Positions 1,606-26,501 of a stretch of 28,601 bases of DNA are shown here, one piece after another. Numbering within the stretch: position 1 is the first letter of the stretch; each line of letters opens with the position of its first letter. The DNA is from a virus, in the IMG/VR virus record IMGVR_UViG_3300030331_004578, positions 1 to 28,601 of that record, one strand, 5' to 3'. The notes below the pieces were generated by a model, which was not told the origin of the DNA, ran no database searches, and saw nothing but the letters and a program-made list of their open reading frames with translations. The position numbers were made by a program, and so were the translations under genes.

Positions 1606-1691
1606 AGTATAATAGTTATTAATATTGTTATAATTAGTAGAACGCCTCCAACTAATATTCTTTCTATAAATTTCTCTTCTTTATTTGTCAT
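1599..1691 (-). CDS. 30-residue single-span membrane peptide
   Basis: A 30-codon frame fills the apparent gap between the sigma-like gene and the EDCGC gene. It has a charged head (MTNKEEKFIERI) and one strongly hydrophobic segment (LVGGVLLIITILITIILW). Its ATG forms an ATGA overlap with the stop of the sigma-like gene, and its stop lies inside the start of the next gene (5-bp overlap). This is the same coupling used by recognised genes here. The hydrophobic span makes it a likely inner-membrane peptide. Function unknown; it is far from the lysis block, so a holin role is not favoured. Confidence 0.6.
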   Translation of the reverse strand: MTNKEEKFIERILVGGVLLIITILITIILW

Positions 1692-2188
1692 AAATTTTTC
1701 AAAAATTTTTTTACTCTGTTTATTGTGTGGTAAATAGTATTTCTATCTATTTTTGTGACTTTAGCTAACGAATTTAAACTATGATCTTTCATATAATACA
1801 ACTTAAATATTTGTCTGTCAAACCAATGACAATTGTCTAAAACCTTCTGTATTTTTTTAACATATTCTTGTCTTAATGCTTGATCGTTATCATCTGTGCT
1901 ACTTTTAGTTATTTCGTTATTTATTTCTGTAACTGCTAATTCGTAATATTTTCTATATTCGTAATAGTATCTGCTTGTCTTGGAATAGTATTGGTTCATC
2001 ATTATTCTTGCTATATAGAAAGTAATTTGTTTTTTTTGTATAATTGTATTAATTTTTTCCTGATCTGCATTTAACAGTTCTTCAATTACAACACTTAACA
2101 AATCATCCTGATCACCATTTCCACCACAAACATTATAAGCCATATCTTTTAGCCTATCATAGTTTTCTGAGATGTAGTTGTTAAGCAT
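1688..2188 (-). CDS. Sigma-70-like RNA polymerase factor
   Basis: The 166-residue protein resembles the short sigma-like factors of Bacteroidota phages. Residues about 1-80 look like region 2: NGDQDDLLSVVIEELL, then an aromatic, basic helix around YYSKTSRYYYEYRKYY. The C-terminal 50 residues form a region-4-type helix-turn-helix (SLNSLAKVTKIDRNTIYHTINRVKKFL). It probably directs host RNA polymerase to phage promoters, and the shared bipartite element upstream of three late genes is an obvious candidate target (inference). Its start overlaps the preceding gene by 40 bp and its stop forms an ATGA overlap with a membrane peptide. A plain DNA-binding regulator is the alternative. Confidence 0.75.
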   Translation of the reverse strand: MLNNYISENYDRLKDMAYNVCGGNGDQDDLLSVVIEELLNADQEKINTIIQKKQITFYIARIMMNQYYSKTSRYYYEYRKYYELAVTEINNEITKSSTDDNDQALRQEYVKKIQKVLDNCHWFDRQIFKLYYMKDHSLNSLAKVTKIDRNTIYHTINRVKKFLKNL

Positions 2189-2478
2189 AGTTTACTAATC
2201 GGGGGTATGCCATTTGTTCTCATTAAGTTGTATTCGTAAAAACTAATTTTTCCAATATCTATTTCTGTAACATTGCCAAATATAGTATTTATTTTATTAT
2301 AAATATAATTTAATACCTTTTTGTCTTTTTTCAAATCTCTTAAAACAAAACACATCTCTGCACCTGTGGTAAAGTTTATTATAAACAAATAATTGTTAGT
2401 ATCTGTATAATCTTGGTAACATCTACCATTGCGACTGTTATAAAAAGTCCTATTTGGAATATTATAAGTTGGCTTCAT
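2149..2478 (-). CDS. Hypothetical protein
   Basis: I do not recognise this protein. I prefer the ATG at 2478 (MKPTYNIPNRTFY, 109 residues) over the upstream ATGs at 2505 and 2487 because it reduces overlap with the preceding gene to 17 bp. It is rich in Asn, Tyr and Thr, with strand-like segments (NNYLFIINFTTGAEMCFVL) and a basic helix (LRDLKKDKKVLNYIYNKI), compatible with a small alpha/beta protein. It overlaps the sigma-like gene by 40 bp at its 3' end. No motif indicates a function. Confidence 0.65.
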   Translation of the reverse strand: MKPTYNIPNRTFYNSRNGRCYQDYTDTNNYLFIINFTTGAEMCFVLRDLKKDKKVLNYIYNKINTIFGNVTEIDIGKISFYEYNLMRTNGIPPISKLCLTTTSQKTMIG

Positions 2479-4771: not shown

Positions 4772-4801
4772 TTGTGGTGTTAAATAACCTTTATATATTT
4801 G
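4772..4801 (+). promoter_or_regulatory. Early plus-strand promoter (Bacteroidota type)
   Basis: TTG at 4772-4774 and TATATTTG at 4794-4801 are separated by 19 bp, matching the flavobacterial consensus TTG-N17-23-TAnnTTTG. The start codon of the first early gene follows at 4831, leaving a leader of about 25 nt. It is probably recognised by the host primary sigma factor. Confidence 0.75.
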
Positions 4802-4830: not shown

Positions 4831-5097
4831 ATGTCTAAAAATTATATACAAACCAAATTATCAACTCGTTCTGTTGGTACTATACAAGCCCTTATCGATA
4901 CAGAAATAAAAAAAATAGACGATATGTATAGTGACTACAAAAAGAAATTAAATGTTGCTAATTCTGAAAGTGATGTTCGACTAAAACAATCATTCTTAAA
5001 AATGTTAAAAACACAGAAAAAAGATTTACAAACAACTCTTAAAGAATTAGATAACGGAGTACATTTAACAATCCACAACTTATACGATCATGTCTAA
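4831..5097 (+). CDS. Early hypothetical protein, coiled coil
   Basis: This 88-residue protein is the first gene after the early promoter. It is mostly charged helix (TIQALIDTEIKKIDDMYSDY to KMLKTQKKDLQTTLKELDNG) with probable coiled coil over residues 18-72. I do not recognise the family. First-expressed phage proteins often alter host functions, but nothing in the sequence shows this. Its stop overlaps the start of a zinc-ribbon peptide. Confidence 0.65.
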   Translation: MSKNYIQTKLSTRSVGTIQALIDTEIKKIDDMYSDYKKKLNVANSESDVRLKQSFLKMLKTQKKDLQTTLKELDNGVHLTIHNLYDHV

Positions 5098-5697: not shown

Positions 5698-6225
5698 ATG
5701 AATATTTTTTACCTTGACAAATCACCTGTGCAATCTGCAAGATATCAATATAACCGACATGTGGTCAAAATGATATTAGAATCTGCACAAATGTTATGTA
5801 CTGCACACCACGAATATGGTAACGGACATAATGTACCATATAAACCTGCTTATGTCAATCATCCATCTACAAAATGGTGTAGACAAAATGTTGCACAATA
5901 TAAGTGGTTATATATACATTTTTTAGCACTTGGTCGCGAGTATGAGTTGCGATATGGCAAAGAACATACAACAATCACTAAATGTCGCGTTGCTTTACGA
6001 TCAACACCACCAAATATGCCTACCACACCATTTACACAACCCCCACAATGTATGCCTGACCAATACAAATGTTCTTGTAGTGTCAAAGCATATTGGCGAT
6101 ATTATATCGCAGAAAAGCATACAGTCGCACACAAATCAGAAAAAATTTACAAACATAGTCCATTAGAAAAATTACAAAATCTATTTATCCGTGCAGGTAG
6201 ATTTTTTATCGCTAAACCTGTATAA
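5698..6225 (+). CDS. Conserved phage protein, HVVKMILESAQ family
   Basis: The 175-residue protein begins MNIFYLDKSPVQSARYQYNR, followed by HVVKMILESAQMLCTAHH. It also carries YVNHPSTKWCRQN (about 52-64), the MPDQYK box (about 119-124) and AYWRYYIAEK. This set is familiar to me from marine phages, including T4-like cyanophages, and some bacteria, where it lacks a proven function. The conserved His, Lys, Glu and Gln residues suggest an enzyme. It has more His and Pro than its neighbours, which may reflect acquisition from elsewhere. It has its own upstream palindrome and possible promoter. Confidence 0.7.
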   Translation: MNIFYLDKSPVQSARYQYNRHVVKMILESAQMLCTAHHEYGNGHNVPYKPAYVNHPSTKWCRQNVAQYKWLYIHFLALGREYELRYGKEHTTITKCRVALRSTPPNMPTTPFTQPPQCMPDQYKCSCSVKAYWRYYIAEKHTVAHKSEKIYKHSPLEKLQNLFIRAGRFFIAKPV

Positions 6226-9662: not shown

Positions 9663-11795
9663 TTATTTTACTCCTGGATAGTGTCCGTTGTCTTTCATAT
9701 TATCAGGTGCCATAACAGCATCTTTTATTCCTCTTGGTGTTGGTGTATAACTTTTAGGTATAGAATCTACTTTTTTATAGTCGTCATCTAAACTCTGTCC
9801 ATTCCTTAACTTTGTTCCGTCTTTTAACCTATATAACATAATTTTCCAAGCGTGCCTACAATATACACCACCTTTGAATCTAAACAGATCGTATGGTCTA
9901 CCTTTATGTCCTAATTGTTTATTAACACCCTCTCTACTTGCTTTGTCAATATCTTCTATCCTATATACAAAACCTGCTCTACTCAATTCCATCATGTTCT
10001 TGCAGAATGTTCTTGTTGTTTTGCTTGGTTTCCTACTCTTTTTTATATACTTAAATCTAACTCTATAATATGATTTATCTAAATAACTAAAACTATCCTC
10101 TTTGCTTTTTATCTCATCTGCAAAATTTTTTTTATCTGTATTTATGATCAAATCGTCTGCCCATTGTTCATAGTCATCTACATAGTCTTGTTCATCAACC
10201 AACTCCCATTTGTCATCCATTTTCTCACCCTTTAAGGAGTTAAAGATAACATCAAATTCCTCATCCGTTAAATCTGCCTTTACATTGTCAATTTCTTTAT
10301 TTTTTTTCTCTGCCCAACTTTGTCCTGCATCACCACCCCATAATGCCCATGCTATTCTACCTGCACTTGGAAATTTATCTGAGCCTGGATAGAATCCTTC
10401 TGCTTTTTTATCTACTTCATGTCTACTAAAAAAACTGTGCATTCTTTGTATAGTGTCTAACGATAGATTGGCACCGTTAATTATATCTCTGGCTCTTGCA
10501 ACTGCAACCATCGTCCCTCCACGATTATATTCTTTTCTCCATTCCAATCCTTTTTTTGCCTCTGCAATCATGCCTTTGGTTGGTTTAGTGTCTATGTCTT
10601 TTAAATCTTTAAATTCTCTGAAATCATCTTTTGTAACACCCTCTTTTTCTTGTTCTGCATCCGACTGTGTTTCTGTTACTTCTAAATCAATAAAATCTGC
10701 AGGTTTAAGAGTTTTAAAATATAGGTCTAAGTGTATGTCATTAACACTAAATATTTTTGCAAGACCTTTAAGTAAAATGTTTTGGAATGGTAAAATAACT
10801 GTATTATTAAATAAGCTATAAGCATCTCGCAGTTCATCTGCATTGCTACCTAAACCACCACCTTCTGCTCGTATACCAAACAATAAAGGACTTGTAACTC
10901 TATGTCCTGACAATATTTTATTTACTACCTCTGTTGATAAAAATTGGTATTTCTCACTTGCACCATTACTATCAATAGGAACAATCTCAGGTGCAGTATC
11001 TTTACCATCGTTAAATGTTATAAGTATCTTTCCTGCATTTCCTGAACTTGCAAACTTTTCATTAATTTGCCTTTCAATTGTCCTTCTTTCTTCTTCTGTT
11101 GGCACACCATTTGCAAAATTGATCGCCATGCTTGGAAACATTCCATTGCTTATATTTGACAAATGGAACTGTGCGATTTCTAAATCTAATTGTATATAAT
11201 CCGTAGAGGCTATATAATCAGGTGCAAATCCATAGAACATTGCAGGATTCTTATCTCGTATCATCAAAATCTGACTTGCTTGTGTCCTATCTGTTGTGCT
11301 AAATGCCTTGTAGGCTCTTGGTCTATATCCATGTTTCCTGTAATTACTCCAATCTGCACTATAATAATAATTATCTATCTCACCATCAATAATTCTACCA
11401 CTACGGATATATTGAGAGCCAATATGTGCTATTTTAGCAATGCTTTTCCTGTCTTTAGACCAAATTACATTGACATAGCATCCACCAAACAATTTTAAAT
11501 CCATTGCTAAATCTTTTAACACATCATCTGGACTGTTGTCAAGTAATGTGCTAAGTTTTAACCAACTTTCCATTGTAGATTCGTCTGCATCTTTGTTAGT
11601 TGCATCCAATCCCTCGCCATATATCATTGCGCCAATAGATTTAATTAATGCGCCATTGATCGCACTACCTAAAAACAGGTCTAACAAATAGTTTGGATAT
11701 AAATTATCTTCTCCAAAGTTAATCCAATCTTGATTTGGTTTTTCTACTAAATGTGGAATGTTATAATGAGATAATTTTACAAGGTCTAATTTCAT
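9663..11795 (-). CDS. Portal protein with fused C-terminal domains
   Basis: The protein has 710 residues, longer than a typical portal. Residues about 1-370 are a portal core (NFGEDNLYPNYLLDLFLGSA; LFGGCYVNVIW; QFHLSNISNGMFPSMAINF; GGGLGSNADELRDAYSLF). An acidic linker follows (370-400). Residues 403-500 match a module found in other phage head proteins (GLEWRKEYNRGGTMVAVARA; FPSAGRIAWALWGGDAGQSW). Residues 575-660 form another (YYRVRFKYIKK; CKNMMELSRAGFVYRIEDI; KGGVYCRHAWKIMLY), known to me mostly from prohead protease or morphogenesis proteins. The C-terminus reads APDNMKDNGHYPGVK. The fusion suggests that the portal also carries an assembly function. Start ATG is 2 bp from the preceding stop. 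Confidence 0.85.
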   Translation of the reverse strand: MKLDLVKLSHYNIPHLVEKPNQDWINFGEDNLYPNYLLDLFLGSAINGALIKSIGAMIYGEGLDATNKDADESTMESWLKLSTLLDNSPDDVLKDLAMDLKLFGGCYVNVIWSKDRKSIAKIAHIGSQYIRSGRIIDGEIDNYYYSADWSNYRKHGYRPRAYKAFSTTDRTQASQILMIRDKNPAMFYGFAPDYIASTDYIQLDLEIAQFHLSNISNGMFPSMAINFANGVPTEEERRTIERQINEKFASSGNAGKILITFNDGKDTAPEIVPIDSNGASEKYQFLSTEVVNKILSGHRVTSPLLFGIRAEGGGLGSNADELRDAYSLFNNTVILPFQNILLKGLAKIFSVNDIHLDLYFKTLKPADFIDLEVTETQSDAEQEKEGVTKDDFREFKDLKDIDTKPTKGMIAEAKKGLEWRKEYNRGGTMVAVARARDIINGANLSLDTIQRMHSFFSRHEVDKKAEGFYPGSDKFPSAGRIAWALWGGDAGQSWAEKKNKEIDNVKADLTDEEFDVIFNSLKGEKMDDKWELVDEQDYVDDYEQWADDLIINTDKKNFADEIKSKEDSFSYLDKSYYRVRFKYIKKSRKPSKTTRTFCKNMMELSRAGFVYRIEDIDKASREGVNKQLGHKGRPYDLFRFKGGVYCRHAWKIMLYRLKDGTKLRNGQSLDDDYKKVDSIPKSYTPTPRGIKDAVMAPDNMKDNGHYPGVK

Positions 11796-12360: not shown

Positions 12361-12508
12361 CTTTCTTTTTTGTTGCAATTTCTTCAAATAACAAATCTCT
12401 TATTCCTTGTTGCAAATTACCAATATCTTTTTGTGTCAATTGATCAAGTGGTTTGTATATACTATCTACACTTGCAGTTTTATACTTGTCTTTGAGTTTA
12501 TATGCCAT
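12341..12508 (-). CDS. 55-residue hypothetical protein
   Basis: This 55-codon frame reads MAYKLKDKYKTASVDSIYKP, then LDQLTQKDIGNLQQGIRDLL and a basic tail (ATKKKDAKVKK). It is the first gene after a strong terminator and carries the bipartite late-promoter element just upstream, so it probably begins a transcript that includes the 42-residue peptide, the 11798 gene and the portal. Helical and charged; function unknown, perhaps an assembly factor. Confidence 0.65.
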   Translation of the reverse strand: MAYKLKDKYKTASVDSIYKPLDQLTQKDIGNLQQGIRDLLFEEIATKKKDAKVKK

Positions 12509-12519
12509 AATCTTTACTA

Positions 12520-12548
12520 TAAATATAAAAAAGTACGGTTTTGTTTAG
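12520..12548 (-). promoter_or_regulatory. Late-type promoter element before the 12508 gene
   Basis: On the minus strand CTAAACAA (12548-12541) is followed after 13 nt by TATATTTA (12527-12520). The same two boxes at the same spacing occur upstream of 14944 and 15957. The element lies between a terminator and the start codon, and ends 11 nt before the ATG, so the mRNA leader would be very short. Confidence 0.6.
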
Positions 12549-12556
12549 TTTTTAAC

Positions 12557-12585
12557 AAAAAAAAGGCACAAAAAGTGCCCTTTTT
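12557..12585. terminator. Bidirectional rho-independent terminator
   Basis: GGCAC (12565-12569) and GTGCC (12575-12579) form a stem with a 5-nt loop. On the minus strand it is followed by eight T (opposite 12557-12564), and on the plus strand by TTTTT (12581-12585). It lies directly after the stop of the 12607-13203 structural gene and ends the capsid-region transcript. Confidence 0.85.
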
Positions 12586-12606
12586 ATAGAATTAATAGAG
12601 TAGATA

Positions 12607-13203
12607 CTAAACGCCTGTTACAAAGTCTATTTTATCGTTATCATCTAAATTATCCCATGGATAGCCTGAAGTCGTAGGACCATTTGTTGGTTCAATTTGT
12701 ATTGGTGGTAATTTTTCATCTGCAGTAAACTCAAGTGTGTATCCACTTAAATCTCCTTTAGCAGCGCCTGTCACCATAGTTCCACCTGTTATATTTACAC
12801 CATTATTCATTCCTATTAGAAAAATATTATCCATAGCATCTCTAACAAATACTTGACTTCTGTTAAATAAAGCCAATTTTATTTGGTTTGTACTGTCATG
12901 GTTTATCTTTTGCAAAGTAATAGAAAGTGTTTGGTTAAAAAAAGTTGTTCCTGTTGCAGGATCACTCGTAAAATTAACAGTCATAGAACTAACATCAGGT
13001 CTGAGATCATATTGCAATAAAGTTTGACTTGATCCTCCATAGGTGTCCCATGTAATAAATCCTGCATTTGTCATCTCATCGTTGGCTATTGTTGCAGATT
13101 CTTCTATATTACTACAATAATTAGGTAATATATATATCATTTTCAATCCTCCAACAGAATCTTTACAGTCTACTTTTCTTCCTAAAGTTAAATTACAACT
13201 CAT
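12607..13203 (-). CDS. Putative major tail or other abundant virion protein
   Basis: The 198-residue protein opens with MSCNLTLGRKVDCKDSVGGL, then KMIYILPNY, an opening I know from structural proteins encoded after the major capsid gene in Bacteroidota phages. The rest is beta-rich (SSMTVNFTSDPATGTTFFNQ, TLSITLQKINHD, LALFNRSQVFVRDAMDN, YTLEFTADEKLPP). Size, position after the capsid gene and flanking terminators suggest a highly made protein; a tail tube protein is my best guess, and no other tail tube gene is evident here. A head decoration protein is the alternative. Confidence 0.6.
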   Translation of the reverse strand: MSCNLTLGRKVDCKDSVGGLKMIYILPNYCSNIEESATIANDEMTNAGFITWDTYGGSSQTLLQYDLRPDVSSMTVNFTSDPATGTTFFNQTLSITLQKINHDSTNQIKLALFNRSQVFVRDAMDNIFLIGMNNGVNITGGTMVTGAAKGDLSGYTLEFTADEKLPPIQIEPTNGPTTSGYPWDNLDDNDKIDFVTGV

Positions 13204-13232
13204 GTTTTTTATTTTAAAAAATTAGTATAAAG

Positions 13233-13254
13233 GGGGAGTATATTCCAACTCCCC
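13233..13254 (-). terminator. Hairpin between capsid and tail-tube-like genes
   Basis: GGGGAGT (13233-13239) and ACTCCCC (13248-13254) form a perfect 7-bp stem with an 8-nt loop. On the minus strand it is followed by CTTTATACTAATTTTTT, an imperfect T tract. It lies between the capsid gene stop and the next start and could be a partial terminator or mRNA end stabiliser that sets the ratio of the two proteins. Confidence 0.55.
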
Positions 13255-13268
13255 ATTTTAAGTATCTA

Positions 13269-14267
13269 TTAAGTCCAGAATGTTGCACCTAACACACCGT
13301 CAGTAGCAACTGCAGTCTGTACACCTATTGCAAAGTTCATTACTATTCTAACATTGTCAGAACCATCATATTGGTAAGTAGGAATAATTCTTGCCTCAGT
13401 CATATCTGTTGCTAAATTAGTTCCGTAAACCATATTAGATACATAAGATAGAACAATTGCATCTGCAGGCATACCTGGACAAACATTGATAGGAATACCT
13501 AAATATGTAGCATTAATGATCGCTTGGTCTGTTCCCTTTAGGTTAATACCTTGATGATTACCAAAAGTTGTAGAACCTGCTAATTGTTGTATGTAATGTC
13601 CATAAGTTTTGTTACCAACATAGAAAGCAACATCAGGCTTAGACAAAAGACCTGGATTATTATCAACCGCAGCGTCATAAACAACACCAAATTGTGCAGC
13701 TGCATTTCCTGCAGTCACTGAATTTATTGTTGCTTCTGTGAAATCTTTACAAGCTGATGCATCTGCACCTGTCTCATCAAACACACCGTCATTGGATAAG
13801 AAACCTGTTCCGTAGACACCACCTGTATCTGCTAACCATAATCCATTCTCAATTGACTCACCTGCTTTTCCTGCAATTGTACCCATTAAGAAATCCTTAA
13901 ATGGTTGTGCTATATCGCCATTTCTTGTCATGTTCTCACCTAAATAAGTAGGGAATATTGTTCCTCTACACACTTCTTGGTTTACTTCTAAATCAGTTAG
14001 AGTTAGAGTTTGTAAAGTTTGGTCAAGTGATATGTCGTTAGCATCAAAGTTACAAATTGCAGCTTTAACTGGATCGTTTAAAGATAATCCTGTAATGTTT
14101 GCAGCTTTTCTTAGACCGTCTATTTGTCTTACATATCCTTTAGCAACTGTGTCAGGACTTTTTACCGCAGCAGTTACATAGGGCAATGCCAACTTACCAA
14201 CATAGTTGTCGGCAGTCACATCTATATCAAACTGATATTCTTTGCTTAAATTATATTTATTTGCCAT
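13269..14267 (-). CDS. Major capsid protein (HK97-fold type)
   Basis: The 332-residue protein has the size and composition of a compact HK97-fold capsid subunit, with few Cys, many Gly/Ala/Asn/Thr and strand-rich segments. Typical regions are LRKAANITGLSLNDPVKAAI, LTDLEVNQEVCRGTIFPTYL, FKDFLMGTIAGKAGESIENG, and the C-terminal part QYDGSDNVRIVMNFAIGVQT. It follows an acidic scaffold-like gene and a prohead protease, the standard order. No obvious N-terminal delta domain is fused; the separate acidic scaffold gene would serve instead. Start at 14267 is 11 bp after the scaffold stop. Confidence 0.85.
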   Translation of the reverse strand: MANKYNLSKEYQFDIDVTADNYVGKLALPYVTAAVKSPDTVAKGYVRQIDGLRKAANITGLSLNDPVKAAICNFDANDISLDQTLQTLTLTDLEVNQEVCRGTIFPTYLGENMTRNGDIAQPFKDFLMGTIAGKAGESIENGLWLADTGGVYGTGFLSNDGVFDETGADASACKDFTEATINSVTAGNAAAQFGVVYDAAVDNNPGLLSKPDVAFYVGNKTYGHYIQQLAGSTTFGNHQGINLKGTDQAIINATYLGIPINVCPGMPADAIVLSYVSNMVYGTNLATDMTEARIIPTYQYDGSDNVRIVMNFAIGVQTAVATDGVLGATFWT

Positions 14268-14278
14268 TTTTTTAATTT

Positions 14279-14944
14279 TTATTTATTGTTAATGTAATAT
14301 GCTGCCCTTTCTTTAATAGACAGTTTACTTAAATCACTTGTTGCACTTAAATTAGTGCCTTCAGGATTATATTTGATCACTTCTTCTGCAGGTTGTTTAT
14401 TTAATTCTACAATCTTAGAGTTTAGTTCCTCTATTTGTGTCATCAATTCACCTATAACATCCTCGCTTGACATTTCGGTTTTTTCCTCTACAACTTCCTC
14501 TACTTTTTCTTCCTCTTTTGTTTCTTTAACATCTTCACTCATTTCCTCTTTGTCTTTATCTTTCATTTCTTCTATTTCTTTTTCCAAAGCTGCCAATCTT
14601 TTTTCTACATCCTCTAAATTAATTTCTGCTTCCATCTCCTCTTTTTCTTCTTCTTTTGCTTCAATGTCCTCTGCCTCTGCATCTTCGCCCATGTCTAATA
14701 TTCTTGACTCGTCATCTATGGACAATTTATTACCATTTTCCATGGTGTATTCGCCTTTTGTTAGTGGCATTGCTTCACCGTCATCACCAACAACAAAAAC
14801 TTTACTACCAATCATAAATTGCTCATCCTCTGTTGCAACGACTCGACCATCGTCTAATTTCATTTCTGCGTAGAATTTTACGCTATAAGATTTAGCTTCG
14901 TTTTTCATTTTTAAAATATTTAAAATTTTTTCTAAAGTATTCAT
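14279..14944 (-). CDS. Scaffold-like acidic coiled-coil protein
   Basis: The 221-residue protein has an N-terminal beta part (SVKFYAEMKLDDGRVVATED, FMIGSKVFVVGDDGEAMPL, KGEYTMENGNKLSIDD). A very acidic segment then runs from about 90 to 155, with repeated EE, EK and EM, followed by a coiled coil (IGELMTQIEELNSKIVELNK). Charge, coiled coil and position between protease and capsid genes mark it as the scaffold. The last residues (LSKLSIKERAAYYINNK) would contact the capsid. A late-promoter element lies just before its start. Confidence 0.75.
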   Translation of the reverse strand: MNTLEKILNILKMKNEAKSYSVKFYAEMKLDDGRVVATEDEQFMIGSKVFVVGDDGEAMPLTKGEYTMENGNKLSIDDESRILDMGEDAEAEDIEAKEEEKEEMEAEINLEDVEKRLAALEKEIEEMKDKDKEEMSEDVKETKEEEKVEEVVEEKTEMSSEDVIGELMTQIEELNSKIVELNKQPAEEVIKYNPEGTNLSATSDLSKLSIKERAAYYINNK

Positions 14945-14952
14945 ATCACCAA

Positions 14953-14980
14953 TAAATATAAAATTATTACCGTTTGTTTA
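14953..14980 (-). promoter_or_regulatory. Late-type promoter element before the scaffold gene
   Basis: On the minus strand TAAACAA (14980-14974; with flanks GATTTAAACAA) is followed after 13 nt by TATATTTA (14960-14953). This matches the element before 15957 in flanking bases as well: both read GATTTAAACAA, 11 nt, then TTTATATTTATT. The ATG of the scaffold gene follows 8 nt later. Confidence 0.6.
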
Positions 14981-14985
14981 AATCT

Positions 14986-15957
14986 TTATCTTTTTACAGA
15001 TTTATTTTTTATAGCAGCACAAACTTTAGCAGCTATCTTTTTATCGCCATATTCCTTCATTTGGTCAGACATGCACTCACTCCAAGAGTATTTTGCTAAT
15101 GCTTTTCGTTTAGCAAAATTTATGTAGTCTAACATTTTGTATCTTTTTTTTCTTTTCTTTTTCTTCTTGTATGAATATTCCTCTCGCATTGTTGCAGAAC
15201 TGTGATCAACGCAAGGCATATACAACTTATCACCATCCACAATATGAGTATGACTACCGCTACAAGACTTAAACATTTCTGCATAAAGTTCGGCTTCTTC
15301 TTTTGTTCTAAATAATGGTTCTCCATCTAATTCTGCTACGGGATTTAATTCATTTTGTAATATAACATCTTTTATTCTACTCAATGTGACTTCATCTACA
15401 CAATCTGTACATTTTTGCTTACTTGCTTCAACTAATTTATCTGTAAACCAACCCTCTATACTAAAACCTCTAACTTCTTTATCTTTTATTTTTTGCCATA
15501 TTTCATTATTGCCTTCTGCACTAACTTGTACAAACCAAGTACCAACAGGCATATTTTTAAAACCCCACATGTTTGACTTGTCAAATTTTTCATCCTCTTT
15601 TATCCATGACTCAACAACTGTCAATCCTTCTACAGGCTCTTTATGTTCCAAAGTGTGGTTGTTATTGTTTAAACTTTGCATAAATAGTTTCTGTGCTTGT
15701 GCGATTGTTTCTTTTGTAAAGTAAACATCATATTCTTCGTTGGTTTCCTTGTCAAATCTTGGTATTTTTTTGTCAGGTATAAGAACAGCACCAACTAATT
15801 GTTTTTTTTCTTCATCAACTTTTGCTAAACTTAGAAAATCATTATTAAAAAAAACAAAGTTTTCTTCTATTGCAGGAAATTTTACTACACTTATAGCTTC
15901 AACTCCAAACATTTCTGCAGTTTCGTCTATAACTAATTCAATTAATTTTTTGCTCAT
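14986..15957 (-). CDS. Prohead maturation protease, XkdF-like
   Basis: The 323-residue protein resembles XkdF-type prohead proteases. The N-terminal part (FGVEAISVVKFPAIEENFVF), then LVGAVLIPDKKIPR, the His-containing HTLEHKEPV (H105) and the Ser-containing RGFSIEGWF (S166) give the His/Ser pair expected for this protease class. A CTDC pair and a lysine-rich patch (residues 264-274) precede a C-terminal helical motif (YSWSECMSDQMKEYGDKK, VCAAIKN) also seen in other phage head proteins. It is the first gene of the head block, preceded by a terminator and a late-promoter element. It would cut scaffold and/or capsid during maturation. Confidence 0.8.
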   Translation of the reverse strand: MSKKLIELVIDETAEMFGVEAISVVKFPAIEENFVFFNNDFLSLAKVDEEKKQLVGAVLIPDKKIPRFDKETNEEYDVYFTKETIAQAQKLFMQSLNNNNHTLEHKEPVEGLTVVESWIKEDEKFDKSNMWGFKNMPVGTWFVQVSAEGNNEIWQKIKDKEVRGFSIEGWFTDKLVEASKQKCTDCVDEVTLSRIKDVILQNELNPVAELDGEPLFRTKEEAELYAEMFKSCSGSHTHIVDGDKLYMPCVDHSSATMREEYSYKKKKKRKKRYKMLDYINFAKRKALAKYSWSECMSDQMKEYGDKKIAAKVCAAIKNKSVKR

Positions 15958-15962
15958 ACTAA

Positions 15963-15990
15963 TAAATATAAATAAATGTCTAATTGTTTA
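15963..15990 (-). promoter_or_regulatory. Late-type promoter element before the prohead protease
   Basis: On the minus strand TAAACAA (15990-15984; in GATTTAAACAA) is followed after 13 nt by TATATTTA (15970-15963). Only 5 nt separate it from the ATG at 15957, so if it is a promoter the head-block mRNA would be leaderless or nearly so. It sits directly after a strong terminator, which supports a new transcript starting here. Confidence 0.65.
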
Positions 15991-15999
15991 AATCATTGT

Positions 16000-16042
16000 A
16001 AAAAAAAAGGCATCTGCTCATACCCCTATAAAACAGATGCCT
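16000..16042 (-). terminator. Rho-independent terminator after the tape measure gene
   Basis: AGGCATCTG (16008-16016) and CAGATGCCT (16034-16042) are perfect 9-bp inverted arms with a 17-nt loop. On the minus strand nine T follow directly (opposite 16000-16008). It ends the tail-gene transcript and separates it from the head block, whose promoter element starts 10 bp further on. Confidence 0.88.
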
Positions 16043-16111
16043 GATAAACAACTTAAATTTCGTTTAAAAAATAATTTTTGCCTTTTAATGAACAAAACAC
16101 AAATATAGTAA

Positions 16112-17623
16112 TTATAATGTACTTTGCAAATCCAACTCTTGTTGTAAGGCTTGAGCATCTGATATATCACTTTCTATGACAAATGCTTGAGTAGGTGCTT
16201 GTTGTCCAATTGTAGGTTGATCAATGGCTTGGATATTTGGTGCACCTAAATCTAAACCTTGTGGTGGTGCATCTTGTCCACCACCTCCGTCTGTACTTAC
16301 ATTTGTATCTATATTTGGTTGTGGTCCATCTTTTACTTTACCTAAAATTTGTTTTGCACTTACTATGCCTGACAAAACAGATGCCACACCTGTTGCAATA
16401 GCACCTAAGTTTAGTGGAAAGGGCAATCCTGCACCTGCTGCAATAGCGCCTGAGACACCTTTTGCAGTATCAATTAAAATACCTGCAATAGCAGCCGCCT
16501 TGGCTGCCTTTGTTCCTTCTCCTGCTAAAGCAGCCACAGATGTCAATATATCTTTAGCCGCTGTTACTCTTAAGGCTTTGTCTGCTTGTATTTTTGCTTG
16601 CTGAATTGCCAAAGCATCTCTTGCCTCTTGCTCTTGTATAGCTTTTAGTTCGTCTGCTTTTTTTTGTGCTAACTCTATCTCTTTTTGGTTTTCCAACTCT
16701 ATTTTTTCCAACCTCTCATTTTCTGCATCTATTTGTGCTTGTATTTCATCTGCTTGTTCTTTTTCTAACGCTTTTAAATTTGTTAATTGTTCTGACCTTT
16801 GTCCTGTAATTCTTTCGTCTAAATCTGCAAGTTCTGTTTTAGCATCAATCAAAGCAACCTGTAAATCTATATTGTCTTTGTTTCTTGACAACTCTAACTC
16901 TGCTAATTTAACTTTTTGTTGTGCTAATGCCTGTTCCTCTGCAAATTGCTTATCTAAAATTTCGCCTAATTTGTTATTTGCAGCAATCCGTTCTTCAAAT
17001 GTTAAACTAATGTCATCTCTAATTTGCCTTTGTATTTCTGCATCTTTTTGAAATGTTAGTTGTAGTTGTCGTTGTTGTGCCTCTGCTAATTTTACACTAT
17101 TCTGTAAATTAACTAAATCTTTAGCAAATTGCACGGTTTCTTTTGCCGACTCTTTTGCATTTTTTATAAAATCTTTAAAACTTTTATTATTACCTACAAT
17201 CGCATCTTTAACACCATTAAAACTTTCTTTTGCTAAATCACCTGCCTCTGCAAATTCACCTCTTAAAACTTTACCAACTGCCTTACCTAATAAACCTAAA
17301 CTTTTTACAACTGATACTATAACAGTACCAATTTTATTAAATATGTCACCAAGAACTGCACTAGCAATATTAACTTTATCAATAACTGATTGATTTTGTT
17401 GTAACATCTCTGCTAATTTTGCAAAGCCTGCTACTATTAGACCAATACCAAGTGCTTTAAATGCAGTACCAACTAAACCAATGCCACTTTGCATAGCTTT
17501 AAAACCACCTTTAGTTTTTTTAGCCGAATCTCCTGTTTGTTTTACTTTTGTATTTAGACTGTCTACTTGTGATATTGCATTTTTAGCATCTACTTTTATT
17601 TCTATTGTTTTTTCTATCGCCAT
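16112..17623 (-). CDS. Tail tape measure protein
   Basis: The 503-residue protein has a helical N-terminal part (KIEVDAK-like opening, residues 1-45), a hydrophobic helix (GLVGTAFKALGIGLIVAGF), a long charged coiled coil with many Gln/Glu/Lys/Ala (about 165-350) and a membrane-like Ala/Gly segment (AAAIAGILIDTAKGVSGAIA, then GAIATGVASVLSGIV). A Gly/Gln-rich tail follows. This is the tape measure pattern. At about 0.15 nm per residue it predicts a tail near 75 nm. Unusually, it follows the large tail protein, whereas in many siphoviruses it precedes the tip genes. A 57-residue gene overlaps its start by 10 bp. Confidence 0.85.
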   Translation of the reverse strand: MAIEKTIEIKVDAKNAISQVDSLNTKVKQTGDSAKKTKGGFKAMQSGIGLVGTAFKALGIGLIVAGFAKLAEMLQQNQSVIDKVNIASAVLGDIFNKIGTVIVSVVKSLGLLGKAVGKVLRGEFAEAGDLAKESFNGVKDAIVGNNKSFKDFIKNAKESAKETVQFAKDLVNLQNSVKLAEAQQRQLQLTFQKDAEIQRQIRDDISLTFEERIAANNKLGEILDKQFAEEQALAQQKVKLAELELSRNKDNIDLQVALIDAKTELADLDERITGQRSEQLTNLKALEKEQADEIQAQIDAENERLEKIELENQKEIELAQKKADELKAIQEQEARDALAIQQAKIQADKALRVTAAKDILTSVAALAGEGTKAAKAAAIAGILIDTAKGVSGAIAAGAGLPFPLNLGAIATGVASVLSGIVSAKQILGKVKDGPQPNIDTNVSTDGGGGQDAPPQGLDLGAPNIQAIDQPTIGQQAPTQAFVIESDISDAQALQQELDLQSTL

Positions 17624-24155: not shown

Positions 24156-24734
24156 TTACACTTTTTGTTGTGTCATGTTCACTGTGTCCAAATAACGGAG
24201 AGAAATCTTTGCCAATTGTTCGCCTAAAGTCAAAAAAAAACCTAAGGCACCTAAAGCTATATCCATTTTGCAACCTAAAAAAATTTGCTCTCTAAACTCG
24301 TCAGGATTATAACTCTCAATAGTATATCTATCACCACGAGAAAATGTAACAGGTCTAAATAGGATGCTCATAATCATATGTAGGTTTTCTATTGGCTCTT
24401 TGCATAATGTTTCTAAATCAATGTATTCACCTGTGGTGAGTTTAGACATGTTTGGTATAAATCCATATTCCTCTTTATCTAATTTAAACCTCTTTGTAAA
24501 ATTAGTTTTACTTGGTTCTGTATCGACAAGTTTCTTTATGATCGTAACTATTTCCAACAAATCGCTATATTCCATTTTTCGCACTATGCTATCTTTTGTG
24601 TCACATAATAAAGCAACACTTTTAAGTATTTTATTTTTCTCTGACATCTTACTGTTCTGTATTTTATAATACTTTTGGTAAGTTCCAATCGTTATGTCAT
24701 TCCAATTATTAGGTATAGTAAGTTTAACTTCCAT
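24156..24734 (-). CDS. Tail assembly chaperone, first (G-like) part
   Basis: The 192-residue protein opens KLTIPNNWNDITIGTYQKYY, a pattern I know from the gene just before tail genes in Bacteroidota phages. It continues with helical segments (KNKILKSVALLCDTK, YSDLLEIVTIIKKLV), a middle block (FIPNMSKLTTGEYIDLETLC) and MIMSILFRPVTFS. It is the first gene of the tail block. In its last third GGT TTT TTT TTG (9 T, 24240-24232) allows a -1 slip into the overlapping frame. A promoter-like element precedes it. Confidence 0.65.
   Translation of the reverse strand: MEVKLTIPNNWNDITIGTYQKYYKIQNSKMSEKNKILKSVALLCDTKDSIVRKMEYSDLLEIVTIIKKLVDTEPSKTNFTKRFKLDKEEYGFIPNMSKLTTGEYIDLETLCKEPIENLHMIMSILFRPVTFSRGDRYTIESYNPDEFREQIFLGCKMDIALGALGFFLTLGEQLAKISLRYLDTVNMTQQKV
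24232..24240 (-). other. Candidate -1 ribosomal frameshift site (T9)
   Basis: On the minus strand GGT-TTT-TTT-TTG contains the heptamer T TTT TTT in the correct phase of the first chaperone frame. The -1 frame is open from 24273 to 23992 and encodes the second chaperone part. A slip here would join 167 residues of the first frame to 80 of the second. I did not find a clear downstream pseudoknot by eye. Confidence 0.6.
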
Positions 24735-24741
24735 ATATATA

Positions 24742-24768
24742 TAAATATAAATTTTTTTGTTTTGTCTT
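24742..24768 (-). promoter_or_regulatory. Weak late-type promoter element before the tail block
   Basis: On the minus strand TTTATATTTATA, containing TATATTTA at 24749-24742, lies 7 nt before the ATG of the first chaperone gene, as in the three stronger copies. The upstream box is poor (AAAGACAA ending 12 nt before it, in place of TAAACAA). It fits a promoter for the tail block, or read-through from TerL makes it unnecessary. Confidence 0.35.
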
Positions 24769-25018: not shown

Positions 25019-26185
25019 TTACATAATATAATATTTTCCACTATTACCAACACCTAATTTATTTAGTGCTATATAACGACTTGCATCTATACTGTGGTTG
25101 TAAGCATCAACAGGTTTGTTGGTTATCTCGTTATTTTTGTCTTTTATCCATTTATAATTTCTAAACTCTTTGATTGTATTTATACTATCTCTTGTTATAT
25201 AAATAAGGTGCCTTCTCATAATGTCTATTCCTGATCGTACACTATCTGCACCCTTTTTTGTTGGCTTAATATTTATATTTCCCATCCTGTGTATTTCTTC
25301 TATGGATTTAGGCTCTGCACTATCTGCAAAAATTTCTATACTTCTATCTATACCTAAATCTTTTATTTTATTTGCTATATCTTGATTTGTTAAACCTTTC
25401 TCATATATTAATTCTTGTATGTAAATACTATTATCTTGTTTGTATAATTTAACAAGAGAAGTAGGATCAGCAGTATAACCAAAATCCAAACCTAATGCAA
25501 TTTCTTTAGCATTCTCAGGTATCTCATCTGCTATTTTAAAATTTGGAAATATTGTTTCCATACTTATACCTCTTTGTCCCTGTCCAAAAACTCGCCATAA
25601 ATTTGCATCTGTATCTTTTAATCTTTCTATTTCTTGTATTGTCGATTTTTCTAAAAATGGATTGTCTTTGTAGGTTGATATATGGAAATCTACATCATCT
25701 CTGTCTGCATCTATAAGTTGAGTGTATAACCAATGGTATTCTTCTGACGGGTTAAAATCAATAATTATCTTAAATGTCGTCCTAAGAGATAATTGCACAA
25801 AATCATCCATTGAGAACTCATTTGCCTCATTCATAAATAGCACATCTCTTTTCCTACCTCTTACACGGACTGGTTGATCAACAGAAATAAACTCAAAGTT
25901 ATTACCATATAAACTATATAAACCACTACTTTTGTTATGATTTCTCTCGTCATAAATATTTTCCTTTTTTAATATCTCAAAGAAATCTCTCATTGCTGTA
26001 CCTCGTAAAGCAGGAAAAGTTTTCCTTGCAATTGTTATATATAAGTTTTTTCCTTTGTTTTTATAAGCAAACTCTATCAAGGCTAACAATATAGAGTAGG
26101 TTTTACCACTACGAGTTCCACCTTGCATTATACAAATCCTTTTAGCAGAATTTTTTACATCATAGTATGGTTTCGCCTGTTTCAT
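25019..26185 (-). CDS. terL: Terminase large subunit
   Basis: The 388-residue protein (from ATG 26185, MKQAKPYYDVKNSAKRICIM) is the packaging motor ATPase and nuclease. Walker A is GGTRSGKT (residues 22-29). Walker B is DVLFMNEAN (about 114-122), with the Glu expected for ATP hydrolysis. The C-terminal RNase H-like nuclease shows GLDFG (Asp about 234), FADSAEP (Asp about 288) and NHSIDASRY (Asp about 367). It belongs to the PBSX/Terminase_3 group. Upstream starts at 26227 or 26197 would lengthen the overlap with TerS; 26185 leaves 26 bp. Length is a little below the usual 410-450. Confidence 0.93.
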   Translation of the reverse strand: MKQAKPYYDVKNSAKRICIMQGGTRSGKTYSILLALIEFAYKNKGKNLYITIARKTFPALRGTAMRDFFEILKKENIYDERNHNKSSGLYSLYGNNFEFISVDQPVRVRGRKRDVLFMNEANEFSMDDFVQLSLRTTFKIIIDFNPSEEYHWLYTQLIDADRDDVDFHISTYKDNPFLEKSTIQEIERLKDTDANLWRVFGQGQRGISMETIFPNFKIADEIPENAKEIALGLDFGYTADPTSLVKLYKQDNSIYIQELIYEKGLTNQDIANKIKDLGIDRSIEIFADSAEPKSIEEIHRMGNINIKPTKKGADSVRSGIDIMRRHLIYITRDSINTIKEFRNYKWIKDKNNEITNKPVDAYNHSIDASRYIALNKLGVGNSGKYYIM

Positions 26186-26501
26186 CTTCGTCTGCATTAA
26201 TCCAAGATGGTGGTGTAGCACTAACATTTACATTTTGATCAGGCAATCCTTCTATTCTATCCAATATTTCTTTTATTGCCCTTAATTTTTCGTTATTGTT
26301 ACTATCTTGACTAAACGCTATTTTAATTAACATTTTTGCTATTGGTGATCCAAAGTGTCCCTCACCACCTATATTTTTGTCTTGTGTTGATAATAATTCT
26401 TTTAGTACAGTTGCTACATTCCTACTACCCTTTGGTCTACCTCGTTTGTCAGGTTGATTTGTAGAACTAAATTGTGTTGATTTGTTTGGAAATTTATTCA
26501 T
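26160..26501 (-). CDS. terS: Terminase small subunit (DUF5681-like N-terminus)
   Basis: The 113-residue protein has NQPDKRGRPKGSRNVATVLK (about 16-35), an AT-hook-like basic GRPKGSRN followed by a helix, as in DUF5681-type small terminases. A helical middle follows (SPIAKMLIKIAFSQ, EKLRAIKEILDRIEG) and an acidic tail (NADEDETGE). It would recognise the packaging site and direct TerL. It lies directly before TerL (26-bp overlap) and after a zinc-ribbon peptide (8-bp overlap). Confidence 0.82.
   Translation of the reverse strand: MNKFPNKSTQFSSTNQPDKRGRPKGSRNVATVLKELLSTQDKNIGGEGHFGSPIAKMLIKIAFSQDSNNNEKLRAIKEILDRIEGLPDQNVNVSATPPSWINADEDETGETIL

What the first reader, a model, noticed from the sequence alone, without database searches (positions are those of the whole stretch)
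12520..15990. A repeated bipartite promoter-like element upstream of late genes, with very short leaders
Three minus-strand gene starts (12508, 14944, 15957) are each preceded by TAAACAA, exactly 13 nt, then TATATTTA. Two copies share GATTTAAACAA, 11 nt, TTTATATTTATT. Two stand directly after rho-independent terminators, so transcripts probably restart there. The right box differs from the host -7 consensus (TAnnTTTG) in its last base, and the left box sits where the host TTG would be. This could be a phage-specific promoter class for the sigma-like protein encoded at 1688-2188. The right box ends 5-11 nt before each ATG, which would make mRNAs nearly leaderless. A weaker copy precedes the tail block at 24742. 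An AT-rich translation signal is the alternative.
Basis: partly seen in the sequence, partly recalled or inferred. Interest (0 to 1): 0.75.

Follow-up and report, generated by a model that had tools for sequence, protein, structure and literature searches.

The report
Late-gene promoters for phage sigma factor
A family of uncultured phages, probably infecting marine flavobacteria, places the same two-part DNA switch just before each block of virus-building genes, most likely so that a sigma-like protein made by the phage can redirect the host's RNA polymerase to those genes, producing messages that begin almost at the start codon.

Summary
TAAACAA-N13-TATATTTA occurs three times, always on the minus strand 5, 8 or 11 nt before an ATG; chance predicts 0.001-0.006 copies. 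A fourth, one-mismatch copy (spacer 12) precedes the tail block.

Relatives make it far stronger. Across about 160 viral loci the element precedes the same four genes (protease, scaffold, a small head gene, first tail gene) in 220 of 234 cases. It precedes none of six genes inside those blocks (0 of 394), major capsid included. Spacing within the element is fixed (12 or 13); its distance to the ATG varies from 5 to 20 nt. This fits a promoter and not a translation signal. Early genes instead carry the ordinary host box TATATTTG with leaders of 21 nt or more.

The sigma-like protein (1688-2188) is conserved in 24 of 25 long relatives and models as an ECF-type sigma (region 2 plus region 4). The cultured Nonlabens phage P12024L, with a syntenic sigma-region-2 gene, has a sister element, AAACAA-N15-CGTTAATA, before seven genes; four flavobacterial phages without an annotated sigma have neither.

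Best explanation: late promoters read by host core polymerase carrying the phage sigma, yielding leaderless or nearly leaderless mRNAs. Sigma dependence and 5' ends are inferred, not shown.

The parts
12520..12547 (-). Late promoter element, exact: TAAACAA (12547-12541), N13, TATATTTA (12527-12520); 11 nt before ATG of the small head gene at 12508
   Evidence: orthologous site in 61 of 61 loci
14953..14980 (-). Late promoter element, exact; 8 nt before ATG of the scaffold-like gene at 14944 (unit scaffold, capsid, cement)
   Evidence: orthologous site in 58 of 70 loci; the eight misses that were printed have AAACAC or AAACAG as left box
15963..15990 (-). Late promoter element, exact; 5 nt before ATG of the head maturation protease at 15957
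   Evidence: orthologous site in 61 of 62 loci
24742..24767 (-). Late promoter element, variant: AGACAA, N12, TATATTTA; 7 nt before ATG of the first tail-block gene at 24734
   Evidence: orthologous site in 40 of 41 loci
1688..2188 (-). Sigma-like protein, 166 aa (ECF-like: region 2 plus region 4); proposed reader of the element
   Evidence: PHROG 1740 RNA polymerase sigma factor E 2.6e-7; AlphaFold model whose top PDB matches are ECF sigmas; 24 of 25 long relatives
12550..12590 (-). Rho-independent terminator directly upstream of the 12520 element
   Evidence: -13.7 kcal/mol, z -4.1
16000..16041 (-). Rho-independent terminator (GGCATCTG stem, T run) directly upstream of the 15963 element
   Evidence: sequence
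4772..4801 (+). Host-type promoter TTG-N19-TATATTTG of the rightward early block, 29 nt before ATG at 4831; internal contrast to the late class
14986..15957 (-). Head maturation protease (Peptidase_S78_2)
   Evidence: Pfam E 1.7e-16
13269..14267 (-). Major capsid-like virion structural protein, no element of its own
   Evidence: PHROG 1623; 0 of 79 loci with element
25019..26227 (-). Terminase large subunit
   Evidence: Pfam Terminase_3 E 1.3e-26

Best explanation
The repeated element is the late promoter of this phage family. AAACAA is the -35-like box and TTTATATTTAT the -10-like box, 12 or 13 bp apart. An ECF-like sigma factor encoded in the phage's leftward early/middle operon (1688-2188) replaces the host sigma on host core RNA polymerase: region 4 reads AAACAA and region 2 melts TATATTTA. 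Transcription then restarts at four points (tail block; protease; scaffold-capsid-cement; the small head gene and following portal unit). With initiation about 5-8 nt downstream of the box, the 5' end falls on the ATG (protease), or a few nt before it at the other sites, so these mRNAs would be leaderless or have very short leaders. Shown here: the element, its conservation at the same four genes, its absence inside blocks, the contrast with host-type early promoters, the conserved sigma-like gene and its predicted fold, and a sister element in a cultured phage. Inferred: that the element is transcribed, that this sigma reads it, late timing, and the exact start sites.
For: Exact copies are far above chance and matrix hits strongly strand-biased, 121 to 4. 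The element is present at the four block-starting genes in 220 of 234 cases and at 0 of 394 of six internal genes. Spacing is fixed at 12/13 while distance to ATG varies 5-20 nt. Box columns average 0.86-1.00 identity against 0.62-0.72 for the spacer. The last right-box base is A in 129 of 129 matrix hits, whereas opposite-strand early genes carry TAHHTTTG, mostly TATATTTG, with 21-47 nt leaders; host -7 boxes are about 7-fold enriched before those early genes and the phage right box is absent there. In Flavobacterium the -7 element is TAHHTTTG with nearly invariant G-5 and starts 4-5 nt downstream (PMC6847099). The sigma homologue is in 24 of 25 records. Its AlphaFold model matches ECF sigmas (SigW, E. 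coli sigma-E, AlgU, mycobacterial ECF sigmas) best, and its C-terminal domain fits sigma-E region 4 bound to -35 DNA, 63 residues at 1.9 A. Nonlabens phage P12024L and relatives have AAACAA-N14/15-CGTTAATA before block starts, with a syntenic gene that passes the Pfam Sigma70_r2 cut-off; four flavobacterial phages without an annotated sigma have neither element near a start.
Against: No transcript data exist for these phages. The sigma-element link is genomic association only; all relatives carry both, so gene loss could not be tested inside the family. Pfam sigma models hit P0002 only below their cut-offs, the full-length model has low pTM (0.47), and no Foldseek match reached E 0.001. P12024L gp35 could not be shown to be homologous to P0002 (hhalign probability 0.2). 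The right box shares seven of eight positions with the host box TATATTTG, so some host sigma recognition is conceivable.
Confidence: 0.8

Rival explanations
1. Late promoters read by the host primary sigma, with a phage activator (possibly the protein at 1688-2188) binding the left box, in the manner of ArpU/RinA-like or MotA-like late regulators.
For: The right box TATATTTA is one base from the host TATATTTG, and PHROG 248 (transcriptional activator) is a weak secondary match of P0002 (E 0.0056). A left box displaced from the host TTG position would suit an activator site.
Against: The last base is A in 129 of 129 matrix hits where host promoters have nearly invariant G. In one clade the right box is TATATATAC and in the P12024L group CGTTAATA, neither of them a host -7. 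The protein models as region 2 plus region 4, not as a lone DNA-binding domain.
Confidence: 0.13
2. An AT-rich translation-initiation signal of mRNAs that lack Shine-Dalgarno sequences.
For: Close to ATG and AT-rich; flavobacterial initiation depends on A at -3, -6, -12 and -13 (PMC6847099).
Against: Distance to ATG varies 5-20 nt while internal spacing stays 12/13; capsid, cement, portal and other internal genes lack it, 0 of 394; the left box lies 23 nt or more upstream; no RNA structure.
Confidence: 0.03
3. A non-promoter DNA site (packaging, replication or partition repeat) that happens to stand between late genes.
For: Repeated and on one strand.
Against: Fixed orientation and tight position before start codons of the same four genes across relatives, with few convincing copies elsewhere.
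Confidence: 0.02
4. Chance AT-rich similarity.
For: The genome is 31% G+C and loose matches (3 mismatches) are common: 30 found, 14 expected.
Against: Exact expectation 0.001-0.006 against three found, and conservation in relatives.
Confidence: 0.01

Closest known systems
phiEco32 gp36 and phage 7-11 gp47 sigma factors with their middle/late promoters
   Same: A small sigma made by the phage directs host core polymerase to late genes; early genes use host sigma promoters and run opposite to the late genes; starts lie 6-8 bp downstream of the element in phiEco32 (PMC8948821).
   Different: The phiEco32 promoter is a single element, tAATGTAtA; here it is bipartite with a conserved left box. Different hosts (E. 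coli and Salmonella there, probably flavobacteria here), and the starts here would fall on or next to the start codon.
Flavobacterial sigma-A promoters (TTG / TAHHTTTG)
   Same: The right box TATATTTA shares seven of eight positions with TATATTTG.
   Different: Invariant A instead of G at the last position, AAACAA 12-13 bp upstream instead of TTG about 19 bp upstream, near-zero predicted leaders (host mean 33 nt, PMC6847099; median 24 nt and 5.5% leaderless in F. psychrophilum, PMC9723704).
ECF sigma promoters (AAC-type -35, CGT-type -10; SM6 of F. psychrophilum, PMC9723704)
   Same: The P12024L element AAACAA-N15-CGTTAATA looks like a classical ECF promoter, and the window's sigma models closest to ECF sigmas.
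   Different: In the window's family the right box is TATATTTA, not CGT, and no anti-sigma partner was looked for.
T4 late promoters (gp55 sigma)
   Same: AT-rich late -10-like box read by a phage sigma (own knowledge).
   Different: T4 late promoters have no -35 box and the sequence TATAAATA (own knowledge).

Membership tests
Phage-encoded sigma late-promoter system (phiEco32-like in function) | Phage gene for a sigma-family protein with regions 2 and 4 | tested here: met
   PHROG 1740; AlphaFold model with sigma-fold matches over 1-166, best to ECF sigmas. Pfam region 4 only below cut-off.
Phage-encoded sigma late-promoter system (phiEco32-like in function) | Common non-host promoter motif before late transcription units | tested here: met
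   220 of 234 orthologous block starts, 0 of 394 internal genes
Phage-encoded sigma late-promoter system (phiEco32-like in function) | Early genes served by host-type promoters | tested here: met
   TTG-N19-TATATTTG at 4772-4801; 7-fold enrichment of the host -7 before opposite-strand genes
Phage-encoded sigma late-promoter system (phiEco32-like in function) | Transcription from the motif depends on the phage sigma | not testable with these tools
   needs in vitro transcription or infection RNA-seq
phiEco32 gp36 promoter class proper | Single element tAATGTAtA | tested here: not met
   Element here is bipartite AAACAA-N12/13-TATATTTA
Flavobacterial sigma-A promoter | -7 element TAHHTTTG with nearly invariant final G | tested here: not met
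   Final base A in 129 of 129 matrix hits
Flavobacterial sigma-A promoter | TTG at the -33 position | tested here: not met
   Four window sites have no TTG 19-22 nt upstream; conserved box is AAACAA at 12-13 nt
ECF sigma factor | Two-domain sigma (region 2 and region 4, no region 1 or 3) | tested here: met
   166 aa, helices for both domains, best structural matches ECF sigmas; region 4 at 1.9 A over 63 residues
ECF sigma factor | Sequence match to curated sigma-70 region 2/4 families above cut-off | tested here: not met
   Sigma70_r4_2 18.0 bits against 25.7; region 2 not hit. Hence 'ECF-like', not filed as a member
Bacteroidetes translation-initiation signal | Position locked to the start codon, present at translated genes generally | tested here: not met
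   Distance 5-20 nt, absent at six internal genes

The most novel reading that the evidence does not exclude
A late-transcription system of flavobacterial phages in which a phage ECF-like sigma reads a dedicated bipartite promoter placed so that transcripts start at or within a few nucleotides of the start codon. The left box (AAACAA) is kept while the right box has changed between phage groups (TATATTTA, TATATATAC, CGTTAATA), so late structural mRNAs are systematically leaderless in hosts whose own mRNAs rarely are.
Probability: 0.5. Interest if true: 0.72.

Novelty: new variant of a known kind. Interest (0 to 1): 0.6.

Why it matters
To judge by the open-access papers searched, late gene control in phages of Bacteroidetes has not been worked out. 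This gives a specific regulator-promoter pair, shared by many uncultured and probably marine phages and with a cultured counterpart (Nonlabens phages P12024L/S) where it can be tested directly. It offers a marker for late operons and sigma genes in uncultured viruses, a possible orthogonal expression part for flavobacterial genetics, and a test of how these ribosomes handle leaderless mRNAs at high output.

Tried and rejected
Near-DNA search of cultured phages and tblastn with the capsid and sigma proteins gave no match; only the protease and the terminase reached cultured phages. A prokaryote-genome scan with the sigma alignment gave one partial match in a 36-kb contig of a metagenome-assembled genome, so no host was identified by it. 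A high-scoring match inside the gene upstream of the sigma gene (2300-2326), conserved 111 nt before the sigma start in relatives, was considered as a self-activating promoter. The NYIY codons AAT TAT ATT TAT are the same in all records that keep those residues (ATT is used for 38% of Ile), but the left box is not conserved and the spacer is 13 in genomes whose other sites use 12, so it is left open. Matches before the gene ending at 17623 (5 of 44) and inside the sigma gene of one clade read as coding coincidences. Covariation of right box with sigma clade is suggestive but could not be separated from shared ancestry. Literature searches for Bacteroidetes phage late promoters or phage late sigma promoters found no description.

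Full report
What was claimed. Three minus-strand genes are each preceded by TAAACAA, 13 nt, TATATTTA. The pattern search finds exactly those three exact copies, at 12520-12547, 14953-14980 and 15963-15990, and none elsewhere on either strand. The sequence confirms the gaps to the ATG (11, 8 and 5 nt) and the longer shared string GATTTAAACAA-N11-TTTATATTTATT in two of them. Shuffles give 0.001 exact copies on average and Markov models of order 1 to 3 give 0.003-0.006. A terminator hairpin stands upstream of the 12508 gene (-13.7 kcal/mol, z -4.1) and another (GGCATCTG stem, T run) upstream of 15957. The weaker fourth copy is AGACAA-N12-TATATTTA at 24742-24767, before the first tail gene.

What the window is. 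It is a 28.6-kb virus record encoding terminase, portal, protease, a capsid-like virion structural protein and a sigma-like protein. Searching IMG/VR with the capsid protein gave 243 relatives, of which the best 80 loci were kept. Twenty-five long records were searched for the sigma protein and 24 have it; those 24 were read in full.

Conservation. A weight matrix built from the relatives finds 121 sites on the late-gene strand against 4 on the opposite strand and 5 in shuffled genomes. Upstream alignments show the element before the same four genes in all but truncated or undetected cases. Over roughly 160 loci (some from the same contigs, so not all independent) it precedes the tail gene in 40 of 41, protease in 61 of 62, scaffold in 58 of 70 and small head gene in 61 of 61; the eight scaffold misses that were printed have AAACAC or AAACAG. 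It precedes capsid 0 of 79, cement 0 of 76, portal 0 of 64 and three other internal genes 0 of 175. Boxes are conserved (0.86-1.00) while the spacer is not (0.62-0.72). The spacer is 12 in most genomes and 13 at three sites in the window and its nearest long relative.

Transcription, not translation. The gap to the ATG runs from 5 to 20 nt while the internal spacing stays fixed, and internal genes, the capsid gene among them, lack the element. Early genes of the same phages, on the opposite strand, instead carry the flavobacterial -7 box, mostly TATATTTG, with leaders of 21-47 nt; in the window TTG-N19-TATATTTG lies 29 nt before the ATG at 4831. The final base, G in the host box (nearly invariant, PMC6847099), is A in 129 of 129 matrix hits. 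So two promoter classes coexist, split by gene class.

The protein at 1688-2188 matches PHROG 1740 (RNA polymerase sigma factor), has 29 invariant columns among 12 diverse relatives, and is predicted as a region 2 plus region 4 fold whose best solved matches are ECF sigmas; its C-terminal domain overlays E. coli sigma-E region 4 bound to -35 DNA over 63 residues at 1.9 A. The full-length model is of moderate confidence (pLDDT 77, pTM 0.47) and the Pfam sigma models fall below their cut-offs, so I call it ECF-like.

A cultured counterpart. The protease search led to Nonlabens phage P12024L, whose VRR-NUC, sigma-region-2 gene (gp35) and terminase are arranged as in the window. Before gp01, gp05, gp08, gp37, gp42, gp45 and gp46 it has AAACAA-N14/15-CGTTA elements, most reading CGTTAATA, the C of CGTT standing 12 nt before the ATG in six and 11 nt in gp37; 8 matches in the genome against 0.3 in shuffles. 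Uncultured relatives of gp35 (47-92% identical) have the same element with N15 at block starts. Four flavobacterial phages without an annotated sigma (11b, 6H, P2559S, P12002L) have neither element before a gene start. This shares the left box and swaps the right box for an ECF-like one. Homology of gp35 to the window's sigma was not demonstrable, so the correspondence rests on synteny, sigma annotation and the element.

Start sites. Flavobacterial starts lie 4-5 nt after the -7 box and phiEco32 sigma starts 6-8 nt after its element. Applied here, protease mRNA would begin at about its ATG and the other late mRNAs 0-7 nt before theirs. Host mRNAs are rarely leaderless (5.5% in F. psychrophilum). 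This is inference.

Comparison and verdict. Function resembles the phiEco32 and 7-11 systems, where a phage sigma takes over late genes, but the promoter differs in being bipartite, in host group and in proximity to the start codon. No description of late promoters in Bacteroidetes phages was found in the open-access library. I rate it a new variant of a known kind, with high confidence in the promoter reading (about 0.93) and about 0.8 in the full reading with the phage sigma.

Noticed in passing
window 2300-2326 (-): A strong match to the element lies inside the gene just upstream of the sigma gene, conserved 111 nt before the sigma start in relatives; right-box codons are invariant but the left box is not. 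Possible self-activating promoter or a coding coincidence.
   Followed up: partly
window 16100-16129 (-): TTG-N19-TATATTTG host-type promoter at the end of the gene at 16112, about 60-90 nt before a terminator at 16000-16041: room for a small RNA just upstream of the protease promoter.
   Followed up: no
L155/L156 (Nonlabens phage P12024L, NC_018272): Early leftward genes gp53 and gp58 and rightward gp25 have host-type TTG / TAHHTTTG promoters while late blocks have the AAACAA-N14/15-CGTTA element: the same two-class layout in a cultured phage.
   Followed up: yes
G008, G009, G013 (L031, L032, L039 records): A clade with a more diverged sigma (about 35% identical to the window's) has a changed right box, TATATATAC or similar, at the sites examined.
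   Followed up: partly
window 5698-6225 (+): Early-block gene matching pyrimidine dimer DNA glycosylase (Pfam Pyr_excise, E 8.7e-6).
   Followed up: no
window 9663-11795 (-): Portal protein with a long C-terminal extension that matches a separate PHROG (2859) at residues 399-497.
   Followed up: no
L236 (PAPR01000004.1): The only sigma relative in the prokaryote genome collection is a partial match on a 36-kb contig of a metagenome-assembled genome labelled Pseudooceanicola, possibly a misbinned phage contig.
   Followed up: no
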